Shown piece by piece: positions 32,188 through 56,307 of a stretch of DNA of 64,000 nucleotides. The stretch is from the NCBI GenBank assembly GCA_030374765.1, contig JARGXX010000093.1:372001-436000 (forward strand), given 5' to 3'. How positions within the stretch are numbered: the first letter of the stretch is position 1; each line of letters starts with the position of its first letter. The DNA comes from Agarophyton chilense (Eukaryota > Rhodophyta > Florideophyceae > Gracilariales > Gracilariaceae). The position numbers were made by a program, and so were the translations under genes. The notes beneath the pieces were generated by a model. The model saw only the letters and a program-made list of their open reading frames with translations, was not told the origin of the DNA and made no database searches.

Positions 32188-32224
<37 letters not shown>

Positions 32225-32868: not shown

Positions 32869-32949
32869 ATGACCGCCGCCGCCCGCGCCTCGCTACTCAC
32901 GCTTCTCGCGCAGCTCGCGCTGCTCGCACAGCTCGCGCCGTCGCTAGCA

Positions 32950-32980
<31 letters not shown>

Positions 32981-34014: not shown

Positions 34015-34161
34015 TGCCGCCCTACGTGCATTGCGTCGCATTCATTTGATCAGCGCATCCGATGCGATATCAAACCCAAAAACAAAAGTCAACCACCACT
34101 TTACTCTTGTTCTTCTGCTCCAACCTCTCTCTGTTTAACTGTACCACTTTCAACGCTTCAC

Positions 34162-35908: not shown

Positions 35909-36680
35909 GTAGGACAACGCTTGGAGCGGAGACACCACGAAAATGTTCGGGATCTTCTTCTCTTGAGAGACACGCCTCAGGCGGAGGAGACGCGTCCCCG
36001 CGGAGCACAGGCACAGAACCACTCTGGAAAGGCACGATGGAGTCGGGTGTAAGACCGAGGCCAATCCGGCGGGATATACCTAGAGTGTTTAGGTGAGCAC
36101 GGCACAGTCCGGGGTGTGACCAATCCTAAGCGGAGCGGTACCACGGCGATTGTCGGAAAAGGAGCGATGAAACACTCATATGAGGTGGACGAGCGGGGGT
36201 AGTGGGGCGGCCACTCACGAGAGCCAAAAACGAGAACAAGAGGAAAACGGGGGCGAAACCCTATACAGGGGCGAGACTACGAAAAAGGTCGGCGATTAAA
36301 TATGAACCCACGGTGGTGGTAGCACTCTGGTCGACAGAGGGGTGGATGAACTAACGTGCGACGGGCGCTCACGCAGTATGCGGTGAAGACGCGCCAAAGG
36401 CGAAGAGTTCAGAGCCGATACTCCCTCCTTGGTCTCCCAAGAGGGTGTTTACTGGGGAGCAGTGCTCAACCTCCTAAGTAGTGTGGCGCGCGGCCCCTGA
36501 CAGTGGGCGTGCGCCCGAAAAATGGACACAAAATAGCGATAGCGTAGCTAAATAAATACTGAAAATTACTAAATAATACTAACCATTAGGTAGAATCCGG
36601 GCCACGTGTGGCACGCCTCGCACTCGAGCGTCGGCATCCGTGCAGTCCACGTGTTCCACCAGTATGCACCTTCGGTCCTA
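35909..36680 (+). repeat. LTR-like repeat (family B)
   Basis: About 770 bp starting TGTAGGACAACGC and ending near GGTCCTAA. It shows the same plan as the family C LTRs (TGTAG...CAA start, a GTTCG block about 45 bases in, GGGTGTAAGACC followed by ATACC further on, and an AT-rich TAAATAAATACTGAAAATTA stretch near the end). It replaces the N-terminal part of the pogo-like transposase, so it inserted later. No second copy is in the window. Fossil retroelement part. Confidence 0.5.
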
Positions 36681-36828
36681 ACCGGCGGTACGCACGCAAT
36701 AGCGGTATAGCTTGTCATAGACCAAGCTAGTACTCCAGCGAGCGAAATCTCTAAGTCCTGGGAAGAACCCTCCTTGAAGGGTATTGCACTTCATATCCCT
36801 GTCCTTAGGTGACGAACACGCCGTCGAC

Positions 36829-37554: not shown

Positions 37555-38361
37555 ATGAGGAAAGAGTGGAAGTAGAGCATATAACGCACAGGTATTAATT
37601 GTCGCCAGATTCGGTGTCAAACTACTTCAAAAAGGTAATTTACGCTTTATTCAAATACTTCGACATGGTCATGCCAAAACTAATTAAGTCTTCTCCTGGT
37701 GAAAAAAGCTGGTTGCTGAATGTTTTATTATTTGGAATGTTAAATGCATGATTCTTTTAAATGGGAGCAAAAACAAATGTTGGCGTTCCACAACCAACAA
37801 AGAACAAATAAGACCGTACGACGGTTACAAAAAGGCGCACTAATGAGCAATCTTTGTCTTTTGTGACCTTTACGGACAATTTATGAGGCTGGAGAAAATG
37901 GACAAAGGTGCGCACAGCGACGTAAATCTGTACACGAATTCTGAAGTATATGTTGGATGTATCTCGTTGTACTTAACCGGTACATCCGTCAGAAACTTAT
38001 GGTGAACGAGTAGGGCATAGCCTACATCAACAAGCGTTACAGGTTGTTCTTACGACGCTGTTTATTTCAAAAAGTGCTTTTCTCTATATCATATATGGTT
38101 GTGGCCTTTCTGTCTAGCTGGCAGTTTAACCAACATGGATACGCTAAGCAGACTAGAGAATATTACGTCAAAAAGCTCGAGGCACACGTGTGCAAACCTG
38201 ATTCATATTCTAACTCAAATTTTGAGTTTGAGTAACCGGTATACCTTTATTCTATCATACATATTCAACCCGCGCGCAGAATGTATGGCAAAAGTTACAG
38301 CGAAAAGAAGCGGAGCCAAAGAAAAAAGTCTATCATTGAGAGCGCTTTGCACTGAGCTTAA
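37555..38361. other. AT-rich intergenic region
   Basis: About 800 bp without a supported gene. Short frames only, and no repeat shared with the rest of the window was seen. Confidence 0.4.
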
Positions 38362-38940
38362 TCATTCCTCCACAACTTCGCTTGCGTCAGTGTCTTCGCC
38401 GCTGAAAGAGGAAGCATCTGAGAGCGGAAAGGGTGCTGCGGCCAACTTTTGCTGCTGCGATGTTTGCAAGGACATTAGCGCGAGATCAACCACAAGCAGC
38501 GATTCTGGCAGTGCTGGAGGGAGCATGTTGATGGGCTGCTGTATCATCAGGTTGTGATTGCGCGCGAACAGATCGTTGAGAATACCGAATTGTTCGCTCT
38601 GGCGGTGCTGCAGCGCCGCGCTCTCATTCGTCGCATTCGCAATGCGCATCTGCGCACGCAACAGTTGCAACTCCTAAGCAGAATGGCGTTGCCTTCGTTC
38701 TTTGTCTAGCCTCCGCACGGCCCCTCTTCTTTGCTTCGAACGAAGATGGCGCTTCTGTTTCTGTGTCCGGGACTCATGGGACTTCGCGATGGCTTTCACT
38801 GCGTCTTCCTCAGAGGTCAAAGTTCTCTTAGATGACGAGTTCTTGTAGTCTAAAAAAGCCTGATCGAGAAAATGCTGGGCATCTTCTTTTCTCCCTCGCG
38901 CCTTACGTCTGTGTTCTCGGAATGCTAGATAAGTGTGCTA
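38362..38940 (-). pseudogene. Hypothetical basic/coiled-coil protein fragment
   Basis: On the minus strand a single frame runs from about 38940 to 38362 with one in-frame stop. The upstream part is very basic and helical (RKEDAQHFLDQAFLDYKNSS, AIAKSHESRTQKQKRHLRSK, RRLDKERRQRH). The downstream part has ELQLLRAQMRIANATNESAA and an acidic C-terminus (SGEDTDASEVVEE). It looks like the C-terminal part of a nuclear protein, perhaps the Myb-like accessory protein that accompanies Harbinger elements, but no DNA-binding motif remains to show it. Confidence 0.4.
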
Positions 38941-39703
38941 GATAGCCAGTTTTGTAAATAAAAAGCCAAAAAATCTAAGAATTTTGCAGATTGCGCTAGT
39001 TCGGCACCTGAAAAAAAATGGAAATAATAACTCCATGCATCTTATTGTTTTGACCACTTATTGCAGTTTAATCTGCATTTGCAGTTTACTGGTCACTTTT
39101 GACCGCTCTAGGTGGAGATCCATACCAAGGCAGTCGTCAGTACCTTCTACCTCCTTACTGGCCCTTTTGCTTACTAGGCTCCAGCGTTCCACCGGGAGGG
39201 TATTTGAGGTTGAAGAAGTCCACCACCGCATTCTCAACCTCGTCCACCTCCCCACTGCTCAAGTTCCTCACACCCGGCTGCCCCACCACACACACATTCC
39301 CACCCTTCTTCTCCACATCCTTACCAACCCTCCTCTTCTTCAGCCGACTCTCTCCAACTCCTCCCCCTTTCCATTCCTCTCTCTCCTTCTTCATCCCAGC
39401 CGGCTCCCCGCGTCTCCCTGGCGTCACCGGCGACCCTTTCGCTCTCCCCCTCCCCTCTCCAACCTCCTTCAGATACTCTGAAACAACTGTTCAAAGAGCG
39501 GTATCATATCGTTACCTATGTGCAGCGTACAAGGAAGACTAGCAAACCGGAACGTCTTTACTAAGATGTTCAGTTAGCAAACACTCTTCACATCGACCTT
39601 AACGTTCACAATCACACTAACTACACTCTTCGGAGTTATAGACCCAGCTCTGCAATATACGCTTCCATTCAGATTCAACTCTCTCCTTCGGTTCATTCTC
39701 ATA
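38941..39703. other. Intergenic with pyrimidine-rich tract
   Basis: No gene supported. Between about 39225 and 39475 the plus strand is very rich in C and T (runs such as CCACCCTTCTTCTCCACATCC), producing long but low-complexity frames. Confidence 0.4.
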
Positions 39704-40405
39704 ATGCTATTGAGGTGTCCTATCCAAAGCCTGCTACACATTCTCATAATCGAAGGAGGCGTACAATGTATAAACGCGTTATACGGGTCTCTACAAACTA
39801 CGCCGTTCAATCCAAACCAGCGATATACCTGGAAGAAAAGATCCTTTCTGGAATTCGGGGCTCTACTCCTTACTCTACTCATCCCCCTCAACGCCATACT
39901 TTTCCTCGTTCACAGCTTCATTCCAGTCAGCGGTACCCTTTCATCAGACGTGAAGACAAATTGTATCGCCTTCTCCACAGGAGGGGCTGCAGTTGGCGCT
40001 TTGGCATATCTCCTCCAGCTTGTTTCTATGTCCTTCTTTCCAGAGTCCTGTCTTAACACAAAGTTCACAATGACCCCGGAACCACGGAGAACCTCTTTTA
40101 TGAACCTCGTGCTTGGCGCCCTCTCCCACTCTTTTCAACAGGCTTTATTCATATCCAGTCCGGCTGTAACCTTCCGACTACTGGGTATGAGGCTTTCGGC
40201 ATGCACTTTCGCTGCACTCTCTTCAACCGCCTTTTCCACATCTCGCATTGAGGGCCCTGGTGTTCCTATACTGCTTGGTAACACAGTGGATGTCGTAATC
40301 TTGATATCTTCGACAGTTGTCATTCACTATGAGAAAGAGAAAGCAAGTGCTGCTCTCACGCGTTTCAATCCAGTTGTTCAGGTGTTTCTACTGAAAGACG
40401 ACTGA
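39704..40405 (+). CDS. Hypothetical membrane protein
   Basis: A 233-aa protein with four to five hydrophobic segments: about residues 50-72 (GALLLTLLIPLNAILFLVHS), 90-112 (GGAAVGALAYLLQLVSMSFF), 132-155, 160-175 and 190-208 (NTVDVVILISSTVVIHY). No family motif is recognised. The frame is whole and ends 81 bp before the convergent gene at 40487. The short distance to that gene raises the possibility that it belongs to the same large element, but nothing in the protein supports this. Confidence 0.55.
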   Translation: MLLRCPIQSLLHILIIEGGVQCINALYGSLQTTPFNPNQRYTWKKRSFLEFGALLLTLLIPLNAILFLVHSFIPVSGTLSSDVKTNCIAFSTGGAAVGALAYLLQLVSMSFFPESCLNTKFTMTPEPRRTSFMNLVLGALSHSFQQALFISSPAVTFRLLGMRLSACTFAALSSTAFSTSRIEGPGVPILLGNTVDVVILISSTVVIHYEKEKASAALTRFNPVVQVFLLKDD

Positions 40406-40457
40406 TCACTATTACAAGAAAAGGGGACTACTCCACATATTACCTCAAATTGTACTC

Positions 40458-40463
40458 TTTATT
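40458..40463 (-). terminator. Poly(A) signal for the dioxygenase gene
   Basis: TTTATT on the plus strand, AATAAA on the minus strand, about 24 bp past the last codon of the gene starting at 44176. Confidence 0.55.
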
Positions 40464-40486
40464 GTTCAATAGGTAACAGATACTAT

Positions 40487-43400
40487 CTAGTCGTCGTCGT
40501 CGTCATCCATTATCATACCGCCGTCTTCATAGTCTCCATCTGTGTTAGCCGAGTTGAGACCCATCCCAGGTTCATCATCCTCTTCTTCATACTCTTCTTC
40601 CCCACTTTCAACAACTTCCATTTTATAATCTTCATCCAACTCCTCATCCTCATCTACCTGGACGTCTTCATCATCACCCTTGTTGGAATCATCCTCTTCG
40701 AACTTCGGCCAAAATGCTGGTTGCCTATGCACTGCGTCCAGTAGCTTGTACCCATCCGGTACCAAGTACATGTGATACCTCATGCAAACTTCCTTAACCA
40801 ATGCATCCTCGTATCCAGCTCCAGCATGAAACACATCTCCTCTTCCAATAAAAATGGAGTACGGCGGAATCCTGAACTTCCTCACTACCATCGTCCGAGA
40901 CAGCCGCTTCAAGCTCCTGTCGTCGGGCACGTACATGTTATGTGACCTCTCACAAACCCAAAGCATAAACGAACTCGCTCCCGACGCCATCATGAAGAAC
41001 CCTGGAACCTCTCCGACGTTCTTCTCGGCATCGGTCAGTCCTCAAAAGTCCGTATGTAACACCTGCCTTGGACAGCCCTCCGCCGTACACAGCACTCGCC
41101 CCCCTGTTTCAGGGGCATACATCCTCTTCTTCCCCGACCGGTTGTTGCACAACCGAAGAGCGGCCGCAATCTGTCCAAACCTCGCATCCAACAATGCCCT
41201 TTTCCTCACCATTAAAACGTTGTTCTCGTCCCCCTCCACAGAATCCACAATCCCCACCTTCGTCGTAATGTACCGCCCAACTCCCTTCATTCTATCTCCA
41301 GCGTCTCTCTCCTTACCAGCGTTGATTATAGGGTCCCATTTATTTCTATCCCCTTCAATCGTCAAGTCCGGCTGGTTCAAGAAATCCGTCTGGAAGAACT
41401 CTAGCAAAGTCCCAGTCACATCCCCATCGAAGTTTACCCCCCTCTTCTTCTCCTCATCCGCCATCCCCTCGTCCGTGGCAAACTCTTCCAGCACACAAAA
41501 TCCTTTCTCCATCAGCTCACTTCTCTTAGTCGCGAAGTACTCGCGGGCCAAGTCATCCCTCTCCATTGCTGCCATCCATATCGCCTGCTCTTCATTCACA
41601 GGGTGGTCCTTCGTCGGTAGAATCACCCCAAGAACCGGTTCTTTCGTGGAACCCAGTTCCTTGTGCCTGTTATGAGCAGCACGCCAATAAACCGCATGGT
41701 GCACACTTTTCAAGTCTTCTACCCTCAAGCACTCCGCCCTGTGCTTGTTCCGTAGGTAAATCATCTGCATCCAGAGGTGCTGATGCTTCACTCCATTTTC
41801 ACCCGCCGGCCACTCGCTCGGAAGTGCATTCACCAAGTACACCCACGACATACGCAACCCCCCCGAATACGGTCCCGCCCTCTTCAGCCCCTTCGGAACA
41901 CCCTCCGGATTATTGTCTTCGAAGCCACGCATTTGCACACCTTCCTCCTCTTCGTCCCCTACAAATGCACCCTGCCCCCCGTCATCATCCAGTTCATCCT
42001 CACTCGATGAGAAAATATTGAGTACATGTTCCTTCAAGAAGCGCTTCAGCTCTTTCCTGCTCATCTTCTTGAACACATCCACCACGTTAGCCGGTATTTG
42101 AGTCGCAGATGTGCCCACCGTCTATCTCCTCTTCCTCTTCCGCTTTAAAGGCTGTTCATACTCGCGTTCATCATCACTAATGACCACAGCCTTTCTCTTC
42201 CCCTTTCTCTGTCTAGGTTCCATCACCCTCTCACCCGCAGCATCCAGCCCGCGCTCAGTACCTTTTCTAGTTCGTGTGATGCGTCTGGAAACCACGGTTT
42301 CCTGGTGTGGTACAGACTCCCCAGCACTAGACGAAGGAACATTCACAGAAGGTGGCACTTCCACCACATCCTTCTCCGCACCTGGGGACGCCAGACTCAC
42401 TTTCAGACCGCCTTCAATCCGCCTTTGTGCGATTTTCATCCTCTTCGACACCAACCCCGGCCACAACCGCTTCCGACAACTGAGCTCCATCTTCGCCGTT
42501 TGCATTCAAAAGTACTCCCTTAAAAACACCTCGTTCTTTCCCATCACAATTGTGCTGTCTAGAACCTTCCCCGCCGTCAGACCCTTCTCCTTTCCCGCCC
42601 TTTCGCATAGTTGGAACATTCCTATGGCGCATTGGAAGAACTGCTTTCGCGTCTCCTGGAAACTTCCCATATTCCCCGTAGAACCCATCCTCACCCTCAC
42701 ATGTAGCTGCAAACAACGGATTGTGAAACGGAATATTTCGTCTTCGAGTCCTAACAACAAGTCACTCGACACATGCGCAAGCGTTAGCACTGGACCCTCC
42801 TTGCATACGTTCTCAAAGAACTCCAGGAGACCTTCGCTCCTGACGAATTTCAACCCAAGAGTCGCATAGCGATTCAAGTGGCGCAAGCTGTAGATTCCTA
42901 TAGCTTCGCTCGTCTTCAGCGCCCCAGCTATCCGTGTAGGAGTAAGGTCAGCCAACTTGGTTCTCTTATCGTCAATCAAGTTGCAAATGAAGGACACTGT
43001 CGAATGAACCTTGTCGGCGAAACTCATCTTCAACACATTTGAACTTATTTCATTGAGTACATTACCAAGACCGAGCACTTCCTTCAGCGATAAAGGCTTC
43101 CGGTCCTTGCGTCTCCAAAGAACGACATCAAGAGACCGCACAATTTCCAACCACTTTCTCCCTTCAGAGGGATCATTCTTCAGATCTCGCAGAACCAAGA
43201 CGCGGTGATGACCGTCAATGAGTATGACAGGCACCACTACCCTCCCATTGTGAACAATTTCACTGAACTCTAATTCCATTCCCCCGACGATGGCAACAGC
43301 AATCGACCCTGCCGACGCAAGCCAGCCAAACGTTTTGCACTTTGCCATCGTCACCGCCCTATGTTCCGCATTCACACTTCTGACAGTCTTCTCGGGGATT

Positions 43401-44176
43401 TGTATGTCATCTATGTCCACAATCAAGCGGCACTGGTCATAGTCTGAAACAGAGATCTTCTTTTCCACGAGAGTCCTATCCACTTCCTGCGAAGGAACGG
43501 CATCGCTGTCATCGAACAACTCCAACTCGGGACCGGTGTGCGAATCCCCGCGTACATTCACCGCTGACCCCACCTCCACAACATCTTCATCAGAATCATC
43601 CACTATCGTCACCCTCTTTTTCGGCTTGACGGGTTGCTTCATGGCCGGCGGCACTGTTGTTGGCTGTGCCCTCTTCCCCCTCAAAGGCGTAGCAGACTCC
43701 TTCGAGGGGGTCGCGCTTTTGGGAGTCTCCGGCCAAGGAGGCCCTGGAGTCAGCACAGAGGAGACGCGTGTCATCATCGAGGTATCCCATGCGTATATAC
43801 CTGCCGACACCATATCCTTCAGCAACTCCGGCGGCTCCTCTGCTCCCTTGAAGGAGTACGGATACTTGGAGTTGATCCCCTCCTTAATTTCAGTCCTCCA
43901 GATGGCCACCAAGTCCTCTCCCGGCATCGCAGACTCGCGCAACGAATGGCCATGCATCGCTCTGCAAAGCGCCTTCCCGGCCGCCCCACTGCCCCCAACA
44001 CCTCTCAACTCCGCAGTGCCAACCATAGTACCCTTCTTCTTCCCTGTCTCATCCGCCAGGAACAACGCCACCCTATCCCCACCAGCCAGATTGTTTCCCG
44101 ATGTAGCTTTTCGTGGAGTGGCGCGTGGAGTACCCCGCGGAGTACCCCTCGCTTTCGCTTTGCCTCGAGTCATCAT
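40487..44176 (-). pseudogene. ParB-like domain plus 2-oxoglutarate/Fe(II) dioxygenase fusion, interrupted
   Basis: One reading frame of 1230 codons from ATG 44176, interrupted by three stops and no frameshift. The N-terminus is basic and low-complexity (GKAKARGTPRGTPRATPRKA). At about residues 245-345 is a ParB/Srx-like domain: IVDIDDIQIPEKTVRSVNAE, then GSIAVAIVG and VVVPVILIDGHHRVLVL, where GHHR is the family core. A long helical region and an acidic/basic middle follow. Near residues 1030-1135 is a double-stranded beta-helix dioxygenase signature: CPRQVLHTDF (H-x-D), PPYSIFIGRGDVFHAGAGYE (distal His) and RYHMYLVPDG (Arg for 2-oxoglutarate). The C-terminus is strongly acidic and ends in poly-Asp. 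By family knowledge such dioxygenases oxidise bases, methyl groups or proteins; the substrate here is unknown. It is divergent from the methyltransferase-SET gene. Confidence 0.65.
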
Positions 44177-44468
44177 TTGAATCGGATCGTAGTCGGTCGA
44201 GGTTGCAAATGGTCGCAGAGCGCTTTGAGCCTTTTATGGTATACAGACTAAGACGTATTGGATCGAGCTCCTTTGGTGGCGACTATCCGGAACACTCCCG
44301 AGAGCAGTTCGTTGCAATCAGCCTGAACTACGTCCGCTTAGTTTCAACCTGAGCTACGTCCGCTTAGTTTCAAACTCAAGAAACTCCTTGTCTCTTTCTA
44401 TCGCAAACACGCCTATTGGCTTGGTAGGCGATACAAGAAAATAAATTAAAAAATTAAAAATATCCTGA

Positions 44469-44537
44469 CGGCCGACAGAGGTGCGCTCCGACTTCATCGG
44501 GGGTCCCGATGAAGTCCCCGCGCACCTCTGTCGGCCG
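44469..44537. repeat. 69-bp near-perfect hairpin palindrome
   Basis: The outer 17 bp CGGCCGACAGAGGTGCG (44469-44485) pair perfectly with CGCACCTCTGTCGGCCG (44521-44537). After a 3-bp mismatch the inner arms GACTTCATCGGG and CCCGATGAAGTC pair again, with a tip of only a few bases. Such a long stem with so small a loop is far from chance. Confidence 0.9.
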
Positions 44538-44586
44538 ACATAATACATATAATTTTGTAATTTTTAGGACGCCCAGGTGTACACTG

Positions 44587-44612
44587 TGCATTCTGTCGGC
44601 CGACAGAATGCA
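44587..44612. repeat. 26-bp perfect palindrome with the same core
   Basis: TGCATTCTGTCGG followed directly by its reverse complement. The core CTGTCGGCCGACAG also forms the outer ends of the hairpin at 44469-44537, so the two share a likely protein-binding sequence. Confidence 0.9.
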
Positions 44613-44778
44613 ACCAGGATAGCTGCGAAGTCGTTCCGCAACAACCGTTCTTCCCTGTGCGCTCCTCAACCGTACTCACAATCTTTCGGTACCCACCCGC
44701 ACCCACCCGCACCCGCTGCTCTCTTTCGCTCAGGCTCTCAAGACGACCGCCCTTGAGGTTGTTTGAACACGTACATAA

Positions 44779-47700
44779 ATGGCTCCAGAACCCACGAGAA
44801 CTTCTTCATCGCCTGCGGCAGACACCTTCGAAATGGGTAAACTGTTTGGTACGGGGGATGAAGTTATCAGGGCGTGTCTGGATTTGCGTGATCGTTACGC
44901 ATCAACGAGGCGGGAGGAAGATGAGCCGCGAAAAGTGGGGCACACTGCATTCATCGATTTCGCAATGGCCAATCGCCACATCCTACCGGAGACCGCGAAG
45001 CTTTTTTATACTATCCTAGGTCCCGACCACACCAATTAAACAGAAGATGAGCTCCGAGTTGTAGGAATGAGGGGCTCGAACTGTCAGAATTATTTCTCGG
45101 CGAGGTTGCTGGATATAAGGGATGGGGACCCAGATAGGCGCGTGAGGGACTTTTGGAACGCGTACGAGGCGGTGGAGTTCAAGGGCATCCCGAAGAATGT
45201 CACTTTGACAGAGTTCTTCAAAGGTCTGGATACAACCCGAAAGAAGGCTAGCAAAAGCCGGGCTCCATTCGCGACCGACTTCCCGACAATGTTCCAGAGG
45301 TTGCTGTTCCTCATTTGTATTCAGTCGGTCTCTATGGAGGAGAGAAGAGTCTCCCGTAAGCGAAGAAAGCGGGACAGAACCTACGATACGCCATTTTCGA
45401 AGGTGGCGATTTATGACAAACCAGTAGCTCAGCGTGTGGGCTTTGGTGTGCAGCTCGTCAATAACGCGTGGGACAGCTTCGCCCAGTATTTGGGATTCCC
45501 TGGCGTGGAATTAATGGTTTTGCCCTTTATCCATCTACGATATTCTAATATGCAGTTCTAGGCAATCGGAAACAGAAGGAATGGGTTCTCTCCCAAGGAC
45601 ATGGCCCAACGACTCATTCCTGGTAGAAACCGTACTTTATTGGAGGAGGATGTCGTCCCATGGGAGTGGAACCTGCCGGAGTACGTTGACACTCCACTTC
45701 GTATGTTGGCCAAATAGTTTCTCGCTGACCTGCACAAAGTGGTGGTGAATGAGCAGCTTTACTCTATATCAGCTCCCAAAAGATGGGATGTTCTAAAACC
45801 GTTTACATACACTTTGCCTAGAGTGTTTGCGGAGAGATTCGACTGCTTCTCGAACTCTCTTATCTCTACCATCTCGGAATACATATCGCCACTAAAGCTG
45901 CGAGGGAGTGTGGAGGTGGAAGTGGTGGCTGCGACAAAGGCAGAACCTACTATGGTTATGGAAGAAGACGAGATAGAAGTTGTACCCCCTGAGAAAGATT
46001 CGGAGGCTCCGGCGGTGGAGGGTGGAGAGGGAGTGGAGGGTGGGACTGGGAATGAGGAAGAGAACATGGGTGTTGGTCAGCATTCTTCCACAGCTGGACC
46101 AAGGTCGGTCGAATCTGAGTCGGTGGATATTCTGCCGCCTCACGTCCTTACCTCTCTGGATGATATAATGTATCTCCAAAAGTGCGAGTCGGAGATGGAT
46201 AAGCACTGTCGAATGTACAATTGTACTTTCGAGAACCTGGTGGAGATTGACGAGACATTGCGCAGCAATGTGTCTCTCCGATAGGGAAAGTGCAGTTGGT
46301 TCTCACGGACCCGCTGTATAGTATACGTGCGAAAAAGAACAGGAAAAACAGCTGGTACGACGTTCTTAACCAGCAAGACATGGTGAAGACGGCGAAGCTC
46401 ATCTCTAAACTTCTGCGTCCGGGAGGGCATATCGTTATATTCTGCGCGATTGAGCAGGTGAACGAATGGAAAGAAGTGTTGTGTCGAATCGGTGCAAAGG
46501 ATGAGAATGGACAGAAGAGCAGGTCGTTTGTCGTGGACAAGGTTCAGCTGCACTTCATTCGCTCTCAAGGCAATCCGATGCGTAATCCCGGACGTAGTTC
46601 GTGCTCCCTGTTTCCCGGAACAGAGTACGCCATTCATGGAGTTCGCAGCGGGTTGTCCTACGCCGAACAACATGGCATGGTGAACTATGAGAACTTCAGC
46701 TATGTACCATCGCGATATCCGGGTTACCATAGCGTGATTGACCAAGTGCCTCCCATGTCCAATGGTGAAACACTTCTATGGAAAAGGAAGAATGCCAAAG
46801 GAGCAGTTACGTATCAGAAAGTGCGGGCGGAACAGAAGTCACGCGCTTTGCTGAAAAAGCTCATCAGCAGGTTTTCTCAGCCGGGAGACATAGTGGTGGT
46901 CCTCTTCGCCGGAACATTTTCAACGGCCATGGCATGCATGGAACTGGAAAAGCACCGTCAGTTTCTAGGGTGTGAGACAGATCCGCAGTGCTTTGCTAAT
47001 GCGAAGCACGCCGCTACAGTGAAATTTGCGTCATGCATGCGGAACAACGAGACGGACATTCATATAACGCAAGATGTTCGGAACGCTGTGACTCGAGTGA
47101 CATGCTTGTTTCCGGACGTCGTCATAAAGCGTTCGAAGTCCTGGAAAACACCTACCGGATTTCCCGAGCATCAGATGTTTCCACCCCATATCGTGGATTT
47201 TCTCTCCTCCATGTGGCAGGATAAGAATATATCGGAGATTGGGCGACGGCAGGCGCTGTATGAGTGGCCAAGAAGTTTTCAAGGAAAGATGTCACTGTTG
47301 GATTGGAATGCTATTCTGGCGGTGGAGGCGACAGTATGTGGTTGTCGGATTGCAAATGCTGGAGTTGGTGTGTACACAACACGCCGGGTGATACAAGGTG
47401 AGACTGTTTGTTACTTTTACGGGACTTTGGTGTACCATGATCTTTCAAAGCGGAAGGAAGTTCATTAGGCATACGGAGGGGGGCTATTGAAAGCGACTGC
47501 TGATCGTTTTCGGCAGTACGCGATGGAGATAAGCGTCCGAGGGGAAGTGTTTCACAAGCTACCAGGAAGAATTAGTGGGGTGTCTCTTATTCCGGTGTGG
47601 ATTGTCCCTGCTCGATTTTGCTTGGGGGGAACAATTAACGACCCCAAGTATGTGGAAGGGGATAGGGACAGGGATGCGGTTGAAGACGGGTTAATGAGAC

Positions 47701-47888
47701 GCCGAACTGCAAATGTTCGGGTCATCAGAACTCCGGGGACGGGGCGGACCCCATTTCAGTTGAGGGACTATAGATTGCTTTCGGTGCAAGCAATTCGAGA
47801 TATATAAATAGGAGAGGAGCTGTTCGCGGATTATGGGACAGAGTATATCTGGAGTATGAATAACACGCCAGTCATGGTAATCGATTAA
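44779..47888 (+). pseudogene. DNA N6/N4-methyltransferase fused to a SET domain, interrupted
   Basis: Starts at ATG 44779 (MAPEPTRTSSSP). The first 1.5 kb encodes an uncharacterised region with an acidic stretch (VMEEDEIEVVPPEKDSE). From about 46290 a methyltransferase of the N6_N4 type follows: VQLVLTDPLY (motif IV, normally DPPY), LRPGGHIVIFCAIEQV, then GDIVVVLFAGTFSTAMACME and FLGCETDP (motif I and the acidic loop). The order IV then I marks the beta class. From about 47340 a SET domain follows: GVYTTRRVIQGETVCYFYGT, LGGTINDPKY, then AIRDI and GEELFADYGTEYIWS. About six in-frame stops and one frame change interrupt the span, so this copy is probably dead. Family knowledge: the first domain methylates adenine or cytosine in DNA, the second lysine in histones. 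DPLY in place of DPPY would also be expected to harm catalysis. Confidence 0.7.
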
Positions 47889-48212
47889 AAGTGCATCGCT
47901 TTTGTTACTTTACTTCATTGCAGTGTACCAGATATTGTGGGCTTTTACTATGCTTGTCGCTACATATAACGTCAAAGCGTGACGTAGTACATATGCTAAA
48001 GGAAAGTCATGTACACCGAAGGAGAATACTTTTCCAATATCTGGTGCGTTCGAGCGCATATTTAAAATATCTGAAAAGTTTGGGGGTTTTCTGAGAACAC
48101 GAAAAGGGTGGAGGTATATTTTTGGAAGCAGAATGTTTCGAAGCTTCTCTCCCATCCATCGCATTGCAACGCGTGGAAGACCATACCACGATCGCTCTCT
48201 CTCTCTTCAACC
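47889..48212. other. Short intergenic spacer
   Basis: About 320 bp between two plus-strand genes with no gene of its own. It should contain the promoter of the coiled-coil gene. A CT-rich GATCGCTCTCTCTCTCTTCA run lies just before the ATG at 48213. Confidence 0.4.
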
Positions 48213-48941
48213 ATGGCTCCGAAGCGCAAATCGAGAAGCGAGAAAACTAGCGGGCGCGGTACAAAATCACGGCAGCATGGAGGGGATGCGGAGGGCGGAA
48301 GGGACAAGGGGCGTAGGCTCCAGGGCGCGAGTGGAGAGAAGGGGGGCGTGCGCCTGAGAGGTAGATCAAGGCAAGATGGTGGGGAAGGAGAGGCGAGTGG
48401 GGGCAAAGGAAAGGCTGTTCGCGCAAAGGAGACGGTGACGGAGGAGAGTGCGGAGCAAATCACGTCGCCTACGGGAGAGATGGTGCGGAGCGGCGATGGA
48501 AAACGGGATGGCGTGCGAAGAAACCGCACGCGTGTACCTAGAAGTGGATTGCGGGGGAGGGCGAGCAGAGCTCCAGGGAGGACAAGGAGAGGGGATGCAT
48601 CCGAGCGGACTCTAAGTGCTGTACTCACGTCTTCAGCTGATGGGGAGCCGGTAAATCCATGCTCTGCACCTGAAGGAGGTGAAGAGATTCCGAATGAGAG
48701 GACGAAGGGGCGTAAGGAGGGAGAGAGAATGTTCGGAGAACGTGGATCCCGCCTCAGAGGCGTTGAAGAAGCAGGGGCATCGTTTACGGGTATGAGGGAA
48801 GAGGACGGTGATGATGAGATACAGAAAGGGAGAATAGAGAGTAGCCGTGGTGGGGAGGGTAGAATAGGTGGACCCAGTAGTGGTCTAATCGCAGGCGCAA
48901 GAGTCGTTCGAGAGAGGATAACGGGGAGAATGCGAATTTAA
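48213..48941 (+). CDS. Basic Arg/Gly/Glu-rich ORF (possible N-terminal part of the next gene)
   Basis: A 242-aa open frame from ATG 48213 (MAPKRKSRSEKTSGRGTKSR). It is low-complexity and very rich in Arg, Gly, Glu and Ser, with many RGR/KGR clusters, so probably disordered, nuclear and nucleic-acid binding. It has no domain. The next ORF is also open upstream of its own start in a different frame, overlapping the end of this one, so the two may be exons or halves of one gene separated by a frame change or a small intron near 48940. Confidence 0.5.
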   Translation: MAPKRKSRSEKTSGRGTKSRQHGGDAEGGRDKGRRLQGASGEKGGVRLRGRSRQDGGEGEASGGKGKAVRAKETVTEESAEQITSPTGEMVRSGDGKRDGVRRNRTRVPRSGLRGRASRAPGRTRRGDASERTLSAVLTSSADGEPVNPCSAPEGGEEIPNERTKGRKEGERMFGERGSRLRGVEEAGASFTGMREEDGDDEIQKGRIESSRGGEGRIGGPSSGLIAGARVVRERITGRMRI

Positions 48942-48946
48942 ATGTC

Positions 48947-50452
48947 GTGGAGAACGCCGTCCGTATAGTGGAAGATGAAGCAAATGATGATGACATAGGT
49001 TTGTTGCCGCGGTCGATGCTAATCGAGAAGATGAATGTGTTGAAGGGACAAATGGGACGTATGAAGGAAGACAGCTACAGTGTGATGGTGAGTTTGAAAA
49101 TGACCCAAACGGAGCTGGATCGGGCGAGGGAGGAAATGAAGCAGCAGAATGTGCTGATTGAGAGTTTGAGGGAGGCGTTGAAAGGTAGAATCGCTGGGGA
49201 AGGGAGAGGGGAGGGAGGCGTGACGCGGCGACGAAAGTATGACATCGGAGTGCAGGAATGCTTTTATGGATTTGCACGTCGTGTGTATGATAGGATTCTT
49301 CATTATGCAAAACTGGAGGCATCGGAACTTTGCTTCGACATCGAGAATGTGGGTCGAAGCTGGAAGAATAGAAGTGAGGCGGTTGGGGAGAGTAGGGAGG
49401 AAAGTATGTTTGTGGTGGGAGAGAAGGAAATGGTTCCGAGATGTCCAATTGAGGTTGCATATGAGATGAGACCGTATACGCCGTTGACAGAGGTCGGGAG
49501 CCATTTATTGTTGAAGCACGTGGTAGAGACTGAGTTAATGGGAGAGAAATCGGAGTCGATAATGGAAGCGGGGAGTTTAGAGGAGTGCGTGGAAAATGTA
49601 AGTGCGGATAGGTGCTTGAGACAGAGGATGAAGCAGACATTGAGCGATGTGGTTGGGGTGCGGAAGCGAGCAGCGCGTGATAAGCTGTTTCCCATGCTTC
49701 GATATGATTTGATCGCGAAACGATCTAAGGTGACTGAAGGGACGGAGCTTTGGGCGGAGTTGAAGAAGCAGATTGAGGAGGCGCAGGAGAAGTTGATGGG
49801 GTCGGGGGAGGATGGGAGAGGTAAGCTGTGTGCGTGGAGAACGAGTGCGATTGAAGATAATACTTATTCTGGATCGAAGGTGTCTGAGAACTTGGAGGAC
49901 TTTGGTGAGGCAGATATGTATTTTCGAAATCAGGTGTCGTTGAAAGTGTTGGAGGAGTTTATGGGCTACGCGGTAGAGAGTCACAGAAATGGAGAAAGGC
50001 AGTATGTGGATAGGACGGTGATGCATCTTGCGCGACTTGATGCATGGATTGGATGTGTGGTGACCACGATGGATAGAGACGTTGGGCGGGGAGGCCAAAG
50101 GCAATTTTTGTTCTCGACGCTGTTTGGGAGGTTTCTGCCACTGGCTGTTGAGGACATATTGAGGGTTGCCTGGAACATGGTGAAGGATGAGTATGCTGAG
50201 GAGTTTGAGAATGATGGATTCTGTGGAGGGAATCGTAGAGATGTGAGTGGGAATAAGGAGAGAATCGCGACGGTTGGGCTATGGATACCGTCGAGAGAGA
50301 AAATCTATCTGGCGCTAAGGGAGGAGTTTTTCATGGAGAATCTCACGAGAAGACTTGGAGCGGTGTTAGATTGCTATATAGCGTCATGTGGACCAGAAGA
50401 ACCACGGTTCAAGCGCTTAGCGTTGGGGAGTAGGCAAGGAGTGGGAGAGTGA
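48947..50452 (+). CDS. Coiled-coil protein of unknown function
   Basis: About 500 aa, open from before 48947; the first ATG in this frame is 49016 (MLIEKMNVLKGQ). Residues near the start form a coiled coil (MGRMKEDSYSVMVSLKMTQT, ELDRAREEMKQQNVLIESLR). The rest is a charged alpha/beta-looking domain with VTRRRKYDIGVQECFYGFAR, VVGVRKRAARDKLFPMLRYD, QRQFLFSTLFGRFLPLAVED and a C-terminal IPSREKIYLALREEFFMENL. I recognise no family. It lies between the methyltransferase-SET gene and the convergent transposase and ends only 87 bp before the transposase stop, so it may be an accessory protein of the element. Unlike its neighbours this frame has no internal stop. Confidence 0.6.
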   Translation: MENAVRIVEDEANDDDIGLLPRSMLIEKMNVLKGQMGRMKEDSYSVMVSLKMTQTELDRAREEMKQQNVLIESLREALKGRIAGEGRGEGGVTRRRKYDIGVQECFYGFARRVYDRILHYAKLEASELCFDIENVGRSWKNRSEAVGESREESMFVVGEKEMVPRCPIEVAYEMRPYTPLTEVGSHLLLKHVVETELMGEKSESIMEAGSLEECVENVSADRCLRQRMKQTLSDVVGVRKRAARDKLFPMLRYDLIAKRSKVTEGTELWAELKKQIEEAQEKLMGSGEDGRGKLCAWRTSAIEDNTYSGSKVSENLEDFGEADMYFRNQVSLKVLEEFMGYAVESHRNGERQYVDRTVMHLARLDAWIGCVVTTMDRDVGRGGQRQFLFSTLFGRFLPLAVEDILRVAWNMVKDEYAEEFENDGFCGGNRRDVSGNKERIATVGLWIPSREKIYLALREEFFMENLTRRLGAVLDCYIASCGPEEPRFKRLALGSRQGVGE

Positions 50453-50530
50453 TAAGGTACGGGGGGATAAGGGGGTAAGGAGGTGGAGCAAGATGGGGGT
50501 CGGCTATGGAAGAAAAGCAGCGGTGACTAT

Positions 50531-50536
50531 TTTATT
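50531..50536 (-). terminator. Poly(A) signal for the KDZ-like transposase
   Basis: On the minus strand TGA TCC is followed directly by AATAAA. The signal sits almost on the stop codon (50540-50542), an unusually short 3' end, and in the 87-bp gap to the convergent gene. Confidence 0.55.
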
Positions 50537-50539
50537 GGA

Positions 50540-53500
50540 TCATGTGCCTTGGGAGGTATTATTATGGGTGCCACCCAGTGGTGGTGTTGTGCCACCAGTG
50601 GTGGTGTTGGAGAAGTAGGGCTTGGCAGTTGGGTCTCGGTAGAATCTGTTGAGGTAAAATCGATGGAAGCGCCAGTGCAATCGAGGGGTGAAGGGGGGTG
50701 CGGGGTAGTTTTGGCGAAGTACATGAACGGGGCCGAGAATGGAAGAGGGTGGTACGAGGCTGAACCAGGGGGAGACGTTGTCGGAGTTGGAAGTGTTTGA
50801 GAAAGGAAGGGGGTGGGCGGTGTGGTTTTGTTCGTCGTCTGTTGCCCATCGGAGGCAGATGCAATTAAGAGAGACATCGACTTGATCCTGGGGTGGAACG
50901 AGTTCGAGGAACTGAACGAAGGCGAACTCGTTATGAGTGGAAGGGGAAGAAGGGGTGGTGAAGCGAAGAAGAGAGTTGAGCTTGCAGACCCAGGCGGTGG
51001 GAGTGGGGTTGGAGAAGCTGGAACCGGCAACGAGGATGTGGGAGAACTTTGGGGTTTTAGAGGGACCGAAGAAGGGAGCAGCGAAGATACGTTGAATGAG
51101 TGGGAGAGGGGGATCTTTGACGGCGAGCTCGTTTCGATCGGCGATGTAGTCGTCTAGGGTTGGGGTGAAGCCGCCGACGACGTATGCGGAATTGACGAAT
51201 GTGAGACGGGTTTGGCGGAGAGTGGGGGAGTCCTGGTTGAGAGCTGGTGTTTCGAGTGTGAGTGTGACGAAGGAGGGGAGTGCGAGGGTTCCAATCTGTG
51301 AGATGATGGCGATAGTGTCTGGGGAGAAGAGGTCCTGAAGGGAAGAGATTGTTGAGTGGGGGTTTGCTCGAAGGAATTTGTGAGCGGTGATGAGATCGGA
51401 AAAGGAGATGTGCTTGCCATCACGGACGAAACCTGGTTTGCGGGCTTGGAAGGGAGGAGGAGGGGCATGGAAGGATGAGGTGACGGAAGGATCAGCGGAG
51501 AGAGAAATCCAATTGTTGACGGCATCGGAGCGTTCGATGGCACGGGTGGTTTCGTTGTGCGCGGTGGGTCTGCGCTTGGAGGTTCGGGAGTAATGTGCTT
51601 TGAAGAGGGTATGGGCTTGTTCGAAGATGCCTGCATCGTTGAAGTGGAAACCCCCAAAGCGTCGAATGTCGTCTACGATGTGATCGAGGAGGTGGAATTT
51701 GAGGGTGCCAAGGTGGGAGGTATGGTATGGACCGAGAACATCGACAGCTCTGTGCTTGAAGGAATGGATTTGGGAGGCGAGTTTGGCAAGACGAGAAGTG
51801 GTCCATTCGGGGACGGAGTTTTAGCACATGGAGGTGAGGAGGAGGTCTGTGTACTTGGAGAAGACGGTTGTGATGGGTGCGGAATTGGCTTCGTCACAGC
51901 AGCGGTCGAAGAAGGCGCCGATGAAGGGGAAGACCATGTCGAGGGCGCGGTAGTCTTTTGCTTCTAGCATGCCGCGGACGCCGTCAGTTATGAAGAAGCC
52001 GTTGAGGGACTGCCCGCTTTCGGAAGTAGAGAAGTCGATGTGGAGGCCGGTAGCTGGGGAATGATTTTCGATGGCGGTGAGGATGAAGTTGGAGTGCTTG
52101 AGGATGGAGGTGCGGACGGAGTGGAAGGAACGGCAGGAGTTTGTGGAGCTGATGGTGGTGAATAAGTGTTCTGATCTGAGACGTTCGATGGTGGCGAGCT
52201 TGATGAGTTTGGAAACGCCGAGGTGGAAGTTGTGGAGGGGTTCGAAGGGGAAGATATTGTATGGGGTGAGGAGGGGGGTGATGTTGAAAAGGGGGTAAGA
52301 CTCGAAGAGGGAGGGGTCTTTTGCGAGGGAGAGGGAGTGGAGTGCTTGGAGAGCTTGTTCCTTGAAGTTGCGCGAGACTCTTGGCTTGCGGGCGAGGAGA
52401 GCTGCTTCGGAGTCCTTGAGGAGGGAGAAGTGTTTGTTGCGAGCTGCAAGGGTGAGGGGAAGAGATCGAGGGGGATGGGCGTGAGAGTGTTGGTGGAGTT
52501 GTGAGCGAGGGACAGAGCATCTCTGGCAGGGGTGCTGGGGGCGGGTGCCGTGGGAGATGGCGAGAATATCCTTTGCCTCGGGAATGTCTGCGCAGTAGCT
52601 GGCGATGATGGGGTGGCATTGACGAAGAACGTTATCTGCGTCGCGGAAGGGGAAACCGGGGAGGGCGGAAGAGAAGAGAGGTTGAAGGAGGGAGGAGATG
52701 GTCTGCTGTATGAGTTCCATTTTTGTTTGGCGGGGGATGGAGGAGGAATGAGTGATGATATCTGCATCTGGAGAAGGAGTGATTGGGGTGAAGGAGGTGG
52801 GAAGATAGACGAGGAGTGTGAGATTGTCGGAGATGCATTTGCGGCGAAAGGAGTCGGAGAAGTTGAGACGGGTGATGTGGAGGGGGTAGGAGGTGATAGA
52901 AGAAGATTTGAGAGAGGTAGAGGACTTGTCGGAGTAGATTTGGACGAGGGCGATGAAGGAGTCGATACCGGTGGAGTGAGGGAGATGCCAGACGATGTTA
53001 TCTTTTGTGGACTGCATGATGGCGGTCTTGAGTGCGGGGACGACTTTTGAGCCGAGGGTGGCTGCCATGGGGTGTGCGAAGGCGGGGGAGCCGGAGGCGG
53101 ATGTTTGGGAGATGGGGTGGAAAAAGGTGTTCTTGAAGTGTACGAGGGCGAGCTGTTGTTTGAGGACATGAATTGCGTCTTTCTGGAAGAGGGTTGCGGA
53201 GAAGCGTTTGTGGGGATCGAAGATGGTGGAGGGGGCGAAACCAATGGACCTGATTCTCTGGTGGAAGAGGTCTGCCTGGAGCTCGAGGCATTGCTTTGCG
53301 GAGGAGACTGAGTTCTGGAATGTTGATTCGGAGAAGTGGGGATCATTAAGGAGAGTGATGAGTTCGTCAGCCTTTCGTTGTCCAAGCTTGGAGGCGATGG
53401 AGGAGATGTAGAGGACCATTTTCTCCAGGTGGGGGTTGTCGAGGGGGGGAGTGGAAGGAGGGAGGGGGGAGAGAGCGAGAGAGGAGGGGGAACCGAGAGG

Positions 53501-53803
53501 GGCAGTGGCGACGTGGATGGTGTCCTGGGTGTGGAGGGAGAGAGAGAGCTGGTCTTGGAGGTAGGAGTCATGGTGTGCGAGAGGGACGTTGTCGGAAGGG
53601 CGATGTGAGGGAGGAGGATGACGGGGGAGTTGTGAAGTGGACTTGTGGCGTTTTGTGCGGGGGGGGACGTTGGGTTCGTTTCCGCCAGGGGAGAGGAAGC
53701 GCTTGTTGGCGGAGAGGCGATGAGGGCACCTTCTCTGGTGCCGCTGGAGGGCAGGGATTTCTCGGGCGAAGAAGGAGCAACCGTTGAAGCAGTAGGAAGG
53801 CAT
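50540..53803 (-). pseudogene. KDZ (Plavaka-like) transposase with N-terminal zinc finger
   Basis: From ATG 53803 one frame of 1088 codons runs to TGA 50540 with a single in-frame stop about 60% along. Residues 1-30 form a zinc finger (YCFNGCSFFAREIPALQRHQ, then CPHR). A Pro/Ser-rich linker follows, then the RNase H-like transposase core: PLHITRLNFSDSFRRKC, LTLLVYLPTSFTP, FRDADNVLRQCHPIIASYCA, DIPEAKDILAI and CQRCSVPRSQLH, matching Plavaka (GYLP, HPILACFIGDYPEQ, CPKC). Next comes LLTPYNIFPFEPLHNFHLGV, like the Plavaka FDxLHQLxKGV, and later LLDHIVDDIRRFGGFHFNDA with IFEQAHTLFKAHY. The C-terminal 400 residues are unfamiliar. Family knowledge: KDZ transposases cut and paste DNA transposons. One stop and otherwise full open coding suggest recent death, or read-through, or a short intron. 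Confidence 0.65.
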
Positions 53804-54121
53804 GGTGGGTGGAGGAGAGGTGGTGGGAAAGAAGTTGGTAGGGGGCGTAGACGGAGAGAGAGTATGGCGCACACAGGGCACGTGACAGGGGAGGGCGGTG
53901 GAGAATAATATAGAATGCAAGGCACGTGAGGTCTGCCAGGTCGGGCCGCGATTCTATTGCGATTGATATGGATGGTACTAAATGTTCAATTTCTATTTTG
54001 AGGTCCATTTTGGGACCGGTTGTTTGTACTAATCTGTCAATCTAGAGCACACAAAGATTGAATCTGCTCCTGCACTACTTCTCTACTTTTACCTTTAAAC
54101 TGCGGCGACAGAAAGATTCAC

Positions 54122-54191
54122 GCTAGTTTTACCTCCATCAAAACTAGGAAAACTGCAGATATGTGCTAGTTTTCCTTCCCATACAAACTAG
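54122..54191. repeat. Two CTAGTTTT hairpins in tandem
   Basis: GCTAGTTTTACCTCCATCAA runs into AACTAGG, and GCTAGTTTTCCTTCCCATAC runs into AAACTAGC 40 bp later. Each forms an 8-bp stem with a loop of about 10 bases. They lie about 320 bp upstream of the transposase start, where a transposon end or transposase-binding site would be expected. Confidence 0.55.
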
Positions 54192-54442
54192 CTCTAATGA
54201 ACGAATGAAAATATTTTCGGAAATTAACACCTCCAAATTTGGATAAATTCACGGGTTTTTCGGTCATTTCAATTCGTCCTTTTTTGACCACTGAACTAGC
54301 ATTCCGAGAACACTGACGTAGCCACCGGCCTCTCGTCTTCTTCATCGTCTCCGTTCAGCGTCGCGATGACCACTTTCTCCGCCATCTCATTGACGCTGTT
54401 CGCGACATGGCGCACATTCTCCGTGGTAATGCGCACCATCGT

Positions 54443-54760
54443 CTACCTTCCATAGTTTATCCCGAACTCTTTCTGCTCTCGTAGGATCGTGGCGTCGGGC
54501 ACGTGGCGCATCTTTGCCGCTGCTGCGACACGAGCGCTCGTTTTGTAGAGCTTCTTTACCTTTTGCAACGGTGCGTTGAGGTTCATGAGCTGACGAATCA
54601 CCCAGGCTTTCTCGAAATTTTTCATTACGAACCATTGCGGTGTATTCGGTGGGATGACTTTAGCAGTGTTGGCAGGAATTTGAAAGATGACAGCATCGTT
54701 GATGGATTTGGTTTGGGTGTGCAAAGCCGCTTCACTAGCATCGTGACTGTTGGGAGCCAT
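54443..54760 (-). CDS. Small hypothetical protein
   Basis: A 105-aa open frame from ATG 54760 (MAPNSHDASEAALHTQTKSI). The middle is helical and basic: VMKNFEKAWVIRQLMNLNAP, LQKVKKLYKTSARVAAAAKM. No family is recognised, and no start or stop context supports it beyond length. It could be a small DNA-binding protein or a chance frame. Confidence 0.35.
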   Translation of the reverse strand: MAPNSHDASEAALHTQTKSINDAVIFQIPANTAKVIPPNTPQWFVMKNFEKAWVIRQLMNLNAPLQKVKKLYKTSARVAAAAKMRHVPDATILREQKEFGINYGR

Positions 54761-56307
54761 GCCGCCCTCTTGCTGTGGAGGTGCCTGAAAGGGGCAAGGC
54801 CTGGCAGTGGAAACAAAAGTAATAATTTAGTGGATATCGTCGAGACTTGTTCTTAAAACATTTCTTTTTGAAAATTTAGTGCAAAGAATAAGGTTTTTAG
54901 CACTGCTCTTTAAAAAAGGGGTTGTGAGGAACTGAACCTTATTTCGGAAATAGAGCCGTTTTTCGCTTTACTAAAAAGGGTCGATATCAACCGTGCGCTA
55001 ATTATCACAGCGGTTTTTATCTATGTTGTCAAACGTGGCAAGCACCAGCCCCAGCCTCCGTCCCCGCCATCAAATCGTGATCGTCCAATTCACCAACGTC
55101 AACGCGCCTACAACGCAATATACCGCTACCCACCAGTTTCACCCGTGAATAGTACCCAACAACAAACAGCGCAAAGCACTTGTTAAAACCACAAAAGTAC
55201 ATCCAACGACAAAAGACAACAAATTATCATCAGCTCTATCTAGAATCAAACAATTTAATGCCCTATCAAGTTTTTTCAAAGACTCTAAAGAGCTAAGACA
55301 CCATAATCAAAACTAAGAAGCCAGATTTTCAACTATTTCGAGAAATCCAAATTTGGGAGGATTTAAGCATGGTTATCGGAATCTTTGGAGACTAACGAAT
55401 ACTTTTGCGTCGTAAACGAAGGTTTCATAGGCGACGAAGACGAAAAAATAAAATTTATAGCATCTTCTCGTGGCCTGATTACCACCAGTCTACATGAGGC
55501 CGTCAAAAAGTTGATTATTGACTCTTCATTCTGTTATTTACTTTTCGAAAATTCTTTCCTATCTAACGAAAAACTTTAAACATATACGCTCACTGTGAAA
55601 TACACCAGCTAGTTTTGAAAAAAATCTGAATATGATATAGAAAAGCAGGCGGTCTCGACGATTACCTAGAGAAACAATGCCGTCATGAAGCAATTTTTAT
55701 TAAATCAGAAGCACACTAATACGTATCTGAGAAAATAAGGGTTGTTGAAGCACTCTGTGGACTCTCGGAAACTCAAAATACGTTCTATTGAACTACAGCT
55801 ACTTTTCTAGTCATACATGCGCCTCCCATATTATTGGAGACCAAACCAATACTCCAGACATTTCAGTGTTCTTCATCCACTCTATAGTTCCAAGCAGCAT
55901 CCTTTAACAAGCACAGAACTCTCTCAAAGAAAGCCCTCAAATCAAAACGCTTGATCAGATGCTCTTTAGAATGTCCAACCTGGTAACCACAATGTATTTC
56001 ATGACTTCTACACTTTGACGAATCGATTACAAAACTGGTTTTGAAATTCGTAAAAAGCATCTTTATTAACTTTAGCAACACCCTAACACTGTAATGTCGA
56101 ACAAACCAGTCGCTAAACAGATTATTCCTCTCACCAGTATCGACAAAACCGATATATGTACGCAACATTTACGAGCACTTTAGGCCCTTCTGGAAGCTCA
56201 GTCTGCCAAAACCGATGCAAAATCAGACGAGATTAAAGTTCTTACCGACTCCGGAGCCCACTTGTTGCCTAGATATAGGTTACTTACAACCATCACAAAC
56301 CTTTTCG
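54761..56307. other. AT-rich region, no convincing gene
   Basis: About 1.5 kb of AT-rich DNA with short frames and frequent stops on both strands. It may be decayed retroelement sequence, but no motif supports a family. Confidence 0.4.

What the first reader, a model, noticed from the sequence alone, without database searches (positions are those of the whole stretch)
40440..54200. A KDZ-type transposon that may carry its own chromatin toolkit
A Plavaka-like transposase, a methyltransferase-SET fusion, a ParB-like dioxygenase fusion and a coiled-coil protein sit together within 14 kb with short gaps. KDZ transposons in fungi are known to travel with TET/JBP dioxygenases. A version combining a DNA methylase, a SET domain and an oxygenase would be a distinct self-contained system for writing and removing chromatin marks, perhaps to escape host silencing. 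That the genes form one element is inference from spacing and shared decay.
Basis: partly seen in the sequence, partly recalled or inferred. Interest (0 to 1): 0.88.

Follow-up and report, generated by a model that had tools for sequence, protein, structure and literature searches.

The report
Jumping gene with DNA-marking toolkit
A large jumping gene, probably in a red alga, exists in dozens of copies that mostly carry a likely DNA-and-histone methylating enzyme, a ParB-type protein joined to a likely oxidising enzyme, and, between them, a row of mirror-image DNA sites they may act on, so it may write and erase its own chromatin marks.

Summary
The genes belong to one Plavaka-type DNA transposon, 38906-54318, with inverted ends and a TA duplication; a relative of the unfilled site reads straight through. 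The window copy is decayed; an 18.8-kb copy elsewhere has open cargo and transposase frames. Of 63 loci of the methyltransferase gene, 46 have both the ParB-dioxygenase gene and the transposase beside it in the same order. The methyltransferase is a beta-class amino type fused to SET. The ParB part folds like Noc/ParB; the dioxygenase rests on motifs only. New here: the two cargo genes are divergent, and the gap between them holds an array of the palindrome TGTCGGCCGACA, mostly 60-65 bp apart (487 in the genome, 5 for the reversed control); all six cargo-free derivatives fetched keep at least traces. A second family of the pair lies beside helicase genes, mostly near contig ends, with another palindrome array. 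The host has no detectable C5 DNA methylase, so the fungal reason (escape from 5mC) probably does not apply. Most likely: a self-contained writer and ParB-guided eraser acting on the element's own sites; inferred, not shown. 'KDZ' is wrong. New variant of a known kind.

The parts
38904..38905 (.). target-site duplication TA, left
   Evidence: single TA at the unfilled relative C96:577933
38906..38928 (+). left terminal inverted repeat CGTCTGTGTTCTCGGAATGCTAG
   Evidence: core found 305 forward and 285 reverse in the genome at up to 3 mismatches, control 26/17
40485..44176 (-). ParB-dioxygenase gene, decayed: in-frame stops at 42506-42508, 42122-42124, 41042-41044; open frame of 1247 aa in another copy
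   Evidence: ParB fold (on a relative); HxD...H...R
41042..41044 (-). stop directly after the HTDF motif of the putative dioxygenase
44234..44778 (.). gap between the two divergent cargo genes, holding a shortened palindrome array and a 59-nt inverted repeat 44443-44501/44505-44563
44529..44540 (.). palindrome TGTCGGCCGACA
44587..44612 (.). 26-bp palindrome with the same core
44779..47888 (+). MTase-SET gene, decayed (in-frame stops, one frameshift near 46280; DPPY reads DPLY); open frame of 1043 aa in other copies
46290..47000 (+). N6_N4_Mtase domain
   Evidence: PF01555 E 2.9e-14, residues 14-250 of the frame starting at 46251
47361..47835 (+). SET domain (position carried over from the open C10 copy, approximate)
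   Evidence: PF00856 23.4 bits against cut-off 22.4 in the open copy
48213..50452 (+). coiled-coil gene, broken at 48916/48917 by a deletion of about 0.4 kb relative to the C10 copy (where it also lies in two overlapping frames: intron or frameshift)
50540..53803 (-). Plavaka transposase gene, in-frame stop at 51821-51823
   Evidence: open frame of 1137 aa in other copies
52211..52966 (-). Plavaka domain PF18759
54296..54318 (-). right terminal inverted repeat
54319..54320 (.). target-site duplication TA, right

Best explanation
SHOWN: a Plavaka-type transposon of about 18.8 kb (15.4 kb in this decayed copy) with inverted ends and 2-bp duplications carries, besides its transposase and a coiled-coil protein, two divergently oriented cargo genes: an N6-adenine-type DNA methyltransferase fused to SET, and a ParB/Noc-fold protein with a C-terminal HxD...H...R region. 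The gap between them holds an array of palindromes of 12 bp or more, mostly 60-65 bp apart. INFERRED: the ParB part binds the palindromes as ParB/Noc bind parS/NBS, and brings the fused 2-oxoglutarate dioxygenase to the element; MTase-SET writes 6mA (and perhaps a histone mark) there; the dioxygenase removes the base mark. Writer and eraser thus share one promoter region and one set of sites and set a local chromatin state (a switch) that lets the element be expressed or hide, in a host that seems to lack 5mC.
Against: No base or histone modification, binding or expression was measured. No profile library calls the ParB or dioxygenase parts; the dioxygenase could not be modelled (mean pLDDT 34.7; that part below 50 almost throughout). 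In the ParB matches that span both domains the rmsd is 5-14, so only the first domain superposes well. SET barely passes its cut-off. Within the young family dN/dS is near 1 for open MTase copies (median 1.05, 7 pairs with at least 20 differences; 0.73 over 213 pairs with broken copies) and 0.53 and 0.59 for ParB-dioxygenase (12 and 260 pairs; 86% or less of the gene), so recent selection on the writer is not shown. Two of 20 loci have no perfect palindrome, and one of six derivatives has only near ones. The derivatives share breakpoints and may go back to one event; that they spread without cargo shows cargo is not needed in cis. Many cargo copies are broken.
Confidence: 0.55

Rival explanations
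1. Partition or tethering: ParB part plus palindrome array work like a plasmid centromere (parS) that holds the element to host chromatin or keeps an excised circle; MTase-SET and dioxygenase tune that binding.
For: Closest folds are Noc, ParB and KorB; arrays of perfect palindromes next to the ParB gene in two different carriers.
Against: No ParA-like ATPase among the element's frames scanned with Pfam; the copies seen are in chromosomal contigs.
Confidence: 0.2
2. Silencing cargo: the element carries a writer that represses its own copies (self-limitation) or other elements, and the ParB protein is its autoregulator at the shared promoter.
For: Divergent gene pair with operator-like palindromes in the gap; a bacterial-type amino-methylase with chromatin partners marks transposons in bdelloid rotifers (PMC8885841, abstract read); KorB, a repressor, is among the nearest folds.
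Against: Autoregulation alone does not need a conserved dioxygenase motif set.
Confidence: 0.2
3. Captured host or bacterial genes with no role for the element; the array is an ordinary tandem repeat.
For: Cargo-free derivatives also multiplied; many cargo copies broken; dN/dS near 1 for the open MTase copies.
Against: Key residues conserved in relatives at about 30-50% identity; the same pair recurs in a second carrier with its own palindromes.
Confidence: 0.05

Closest known systems
TET-bearing Plavaka, KDZ and other DNA transposons of fungi (PMC12730594: abstract and passages read)
   Same: DNA transposon, here Plavaka, that carries a likely Fe/2OG DNA-modifying enzyme beside its transposase; 2-bp duplication as in PlavakaA
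   Different: Oxygenase is not matched by Pfam as TET/JBP and is fused to ParB; adds a DNA methylase-SET protein and a palindrome array; host without detectable C5 methylase; termini CGTC...GACG rather than TGT..ACA or CATCA..TGATG
Retrotransposons with C5 methylases in dinoflagellates and charophytes (PMC5890265, abstract read)
   Same: Mobile element that encodes its own DNA methylase
   Different: Retrotransposons and 5mC; SET, ParB-oxygenase or site arrays are not mentioned in the abstract
N4CMT of bdelloid rotifers (PMC8885841, abstract read)
   Same: Bacterial amino-methylase in a eukaryote lacking C5 methylases, joined to a chromatin domain
   Different: A gene of the animal that marks transposons; fused to a chromodomain, not SET, and not described as carried by an element
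ParB/Noc/KorB with parS/NBS/operator sites (bacteria and plasmids; site facts recalled)
   Same: Fold; palindromic sites next to the gene
   Different: Eukaryotic transposon; fused to a putative dioxygenase; site binding not tested; sites arrayed about every 63 bp
Telomere-linked helicase repeats of fungi (name seen in search listing only)
   Same: Second carrier sits near chromosome ends beside an OrsD-helicase gene
   Different: Carries the MTase-SET and ParB-oxygenase pair; probably a red alga

Membership tests
Plavaka | Plavaka transposase domain PF18759 | tested here: met
   E 1.8e-21, 1.4e-22 in an open copy
Plavaka | 2-bp (A) or 2-3-bp (B) target duplication | tested here: met
   identical dinucleotides in 16 of 19 scorable pairs of ends (20 pairs fetched, one without the CGTC motif on one side; two pairs share flanks; two of the 16 have one changed letter in one CGTC), plus the window copy
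Plavaka | termini TGT..ACA (PlavakaA) or CATCA..TGATG (PlavakaB) | tested here: not met
   termini CGTC[T/A]GTGTTC...: Plavaka by transposase, but in neither described subgroup by its ends
KDZ | KDZ transposase PF18758 | tested here: inconclusive
   no match in the genome, but no control rang either
KDZ | 8-bp duplication (Zisupton) | tested here: not met
   2 bp
TET/JBP dioxygenase | match to a TET/JBP profile | tested here: inconclusive
   no TET/JBP row in Pfam scans to E 10 of the open copy, four relatives and the second-carrier protein; fast filters can miss
Fe(II)/2OG dioxygenase | HxD...H metal triad and an Arg after it | tested here: met
   H1060, D1062, H1136, R1152 invariant in four proteins; the same columns invariant when a distant relative is aligned with three of them
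Fe(II)/2OG dioxygenase | double-stranded beta-helix fold | tested here: inconclusive
   models too poor
Beta-class amino-methyltransferase | N6_N4_Mtase profile with DPPY before the SAM motif | tested here: met
   PF01555 E 3.4e-18; TDPPY, then DLFAGTFST, in the open copy; window copy reads DPLY
SET domain | PF00856 over cut-off | tested here: met
   23.4 bits, cut-off 22.4; 29-30 bits in two relatives
ParB/Noc | ParB/Srx fold with following DNA-binding domain | tested here: met
   on relative P0015, whose residues 61-390 have block means of pLDDT 41-83; the first domain superposes well (rmsd about 3), both together loosely; no Pfam match
ParB/Noc | binding to a palindromic site near the gene | not testable with these tools
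   palindrome arrays exist in both carriers; binding needs an assay

The most novel reading that the evidence does not exclude
A eukaryotic transposon runs a parS/Noc-like loading system: ParB-fold clamps loaded at a palindrome array spread along the element and carry a fused DNA-base dioxygenase, opposed by a 6mA methylase-SET, giving a heritable on/off chromatin switch; the gene pair with its site array is an exchangeable cassette also used by repeats at chromosome ends.
Probability: 0.3. Interest if true: 0.94.

Novelty: new variant of a known kind. Interest (0 to 1): 0.83.

Why it matters
Transposons are known to carry a DNA-mark eraser (fungal TET, PMC12730594) or a writer (C5 methylases in retrotransposons, PMC5890265). 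Here one element carries a likely writer and a likely eraser with probable target sites between their genes, in a host without detectable C5 methylase. It makes 6mA as a transposon-controlled mark testable, perhaps from long-read signal that already exists for such assemblies, and suggests that ParB-type site binding was taken up for chromatin control in eukaryotes.

Tried and rejected
KDZ membership: rejected on the transposase and duplication length. Alternative genetic code for the in-frame stops: rejected, since another copy is open at the same places with ordinary codons. RIP-like decay: the stops compared with the C10 copy are not all C-to-T changes (read by eye). Escape from 5mC: unlikely (the controls are prokaryotes and the search is exon by exon, so absence is likely, not proven). 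Relatives in viral contigs: none for ParB-dioxygenase, one weak methylase match (30% identity), not followed. PDB sequence searches with the ParB-dioxygenase protein and alignments: nothing useful. First structure model: too poor. No dioxygenase appears in the structural lists, which says nothing as that part of the model is poor. Extra open frames at the left end of the C10 copy: no Pfam family over its cut-off. Last homology search with the alignment added one distant protein, P0018. Literature (open-licence library only): 'Plavaka' with 'Rhodophyta' 0 papers; transposon, SET domain, adenine methyltransferase, eukaryot, ParB together 0; ParB, 2OG, dioxygenase, transposon, eukaryot 2, unrelated by their listing; Plavaka, transposon, methyltransferase 2, of which one was opened. 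A broad survey of 6mA in eukaryotes (PMC12695648, passages found by term) has no occurrence of 'red alga', 'Rhodophyt' or 'Gracilaria'. So the combination was not found in print by these searches. Genome-wide copy number of the helicase gene of the second carrier: not obtained (service busy).
Full report
SETTING. The window lies in an unnamed eukaryotic genome of 79.8 Mb in 135 contigs. The only relatives of the methyltransferase with an organism name among 14 hits are proteins of the red alga Gracilariopsis chorda; they group with this family's gene in a tree (100/98 support). A red-algal host is my inference; the species is unknown.

ONE ELEMENT. A repeat scan found 32-nt inverted arms at 38904-38935 and 54289-54320. 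Their core occurs 305 times forward and 285 times reverse in the genome at up to 3 mismatches, against 26 and 17 for the reversed control. I fetched both ends of 20 copies, nearly all chosen from pairs of exact cores. The repeat starts CGTC[T/A]GTGTTCTCGGAATGCTAG, and in 16 of 19 scorable pairs the two bases outside are the same on both sides; one of the 20 lacks CGTC on one side and was not scored, two pairs share flanks and may be one insertion, three pairs disagree. The window copy has TA on both sides, so it spans 38906-54318. Joining its flanks gives a continuous reading frame, and a relative of this place at C96:577933 reads straight through the junction with a single TA (74% identity); a second relative at C21:216474 also spans it, less cleanly (72%).

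THE GENES TRAVEL TOGETHER. The genome has 63 listed loci of the MTase gene of this family (of 104 hits, 37 belong to other groups and 4 are second pieces). Of the 63, 46 have both the ParB-dioxygenase gene upstream (mostly 3.6-5 kb between hit starts) and a transposase hit downstream (mostly about 6 kb), on the opposite strand; 3 have only the first, 11 only the second, 3 neither (with transposase hits; lists are lower bounds). Randomly placed genes give 0.76 of 63 MTase-ParB neighbours, at most 3 in 200 trials. A copy on C10 (918487-937296, 18.8 kb, from the alignment) has open frames for MTase-SET (1043 aa), ParB-dioxygenase (1247 aa) and transposase (1137 aa); its coiled-coil gene lies in two overlapping frames. 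It is 97-99% like the window copy, which lacks about 2.3 kb at the left, more than half of the array gap, and 0.4 kb in the coiled-coil gene, and has stops in three genes. The 20 MTase copies fetched are 98.4-100% like C10: the family is young.

The gap between the divergent cargo genes of the C10 copy holds nine perfect TGTCGGCCGACA sites. In 20 fetched loci the gap (in three of them the 1500 bases upstream, as the MTase start was not in the locus) has 0 to 15 perfect sites: 18 of 20 at least one, 20 of 20 at least one within 2 mismatches, mostly 60-65 bp apart; about 3.2 kb of coding sequence per locus has none perfect and one near match in all. The genome has 487, against 5 for the reversed word. 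Of the first 50 listed (contigs C1-C3), 48 lie inside or within 3.5 kb of listed element ends and two could not be placed (compared by hand). Six short elements chosen from the end list carry a shortened transposase and show no match to the cargo genes, yet keep a piece of the left end (0.7 kb in five, 0.3 kb in one), array sequence (five with perfect sites, one only with near ones) and the right 0.2 kb. They share breakpoints, so this may be one ancestral deletion, but it fits a cis-acting site served in trans.

A SECOND CARRIER. The genome holds a diverged version of the pair (36% and 35% identity over nearly the whole proteins). At the end of C95 it lies next to telomere repeats, with the ParB-dioxygenase and MTase-SET genes again divergent, followed by a 1880-aa frame with OrsD and helicase domains. 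The gap holds a tandem 773-bp repeat with the palindrome ATTGCCTGCAGGCAAT, 177 in the genome against 0. Of the 37 MTase hits outside the first family (mostly 46-53% identical, a few relics among them), at least 26 lie within 60 kb of a contig end, 7 could not be judged, 4 do not (coordinates with contig lengths seen); only C95 was seen to reach telomere repeats. ParB partners were listed for 11 of the 37 within 25 kb, and no Plavaka hit lay within 15 kb of 36 of the 37. On C10 two units follow each other at 99.9% identity. One copy inside contig C4 is 95% alike, damaged, and also followed by the helicase frame. So the pair and a palindrome array occur in two otherwise different settings.

HOW IT MAY WORK. 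See best explanation. The host has no match to the C5 DNA methylase family, while 10 of 14 control genomes, all prokaryotes, do. That makes the fungal reason for carrying an oxygenase unlikely here and 6mA the likely mark.

LIMITS.

Noticed in passing
L083-L085 (G000:C95:1-26000): A diverged pair of the same two genes beside telomere repeats, with an OrsD-helicase gene and a 773-bp repeat carrying a 16-bp palindrome; many near-identical copies, mostly near contig ends.
   Followed up: partly
G000:C79:655360, C105:1199179, C71:762401, C128:250771 and others: A set of short MTase pieces, each in a 165-aa frame with one TAG: probably remains of a third, older family.
   Followed up: no
window 1-648 and 8332-8980: 95% direct repeats around gypsy-type pol frames: probably an LTR retrotransposon.
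   Followed up: no
window 25269-25801 and 26901-27431: Inverted repeats of 0.53 kb, 91.6% alike, between two related membrane-protein-like frames.
   Followed up: no
window 38300-38905 and 54321-54920: The element sits inside a reading frame that has relatives at C96:577933 and C21:216474; it may itself belong to another repeat.
   Followed up: partly
window 31800-34100: GC-rich stretch (66%) with many simple repeats and a long frame, unlike its surroundings.
   Followed up: no
G000:C2:40675-59131 and C12:654628-673551: Two copies have nearly the same flanks in opposite orientation: a duplicated region or a second haplotype in the assembly.
   Followed up: no
window 36587-36786: 88.5% match to the sequence just outside the C10 copy: both may lie in copies of another repeat.
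   Followed up: no
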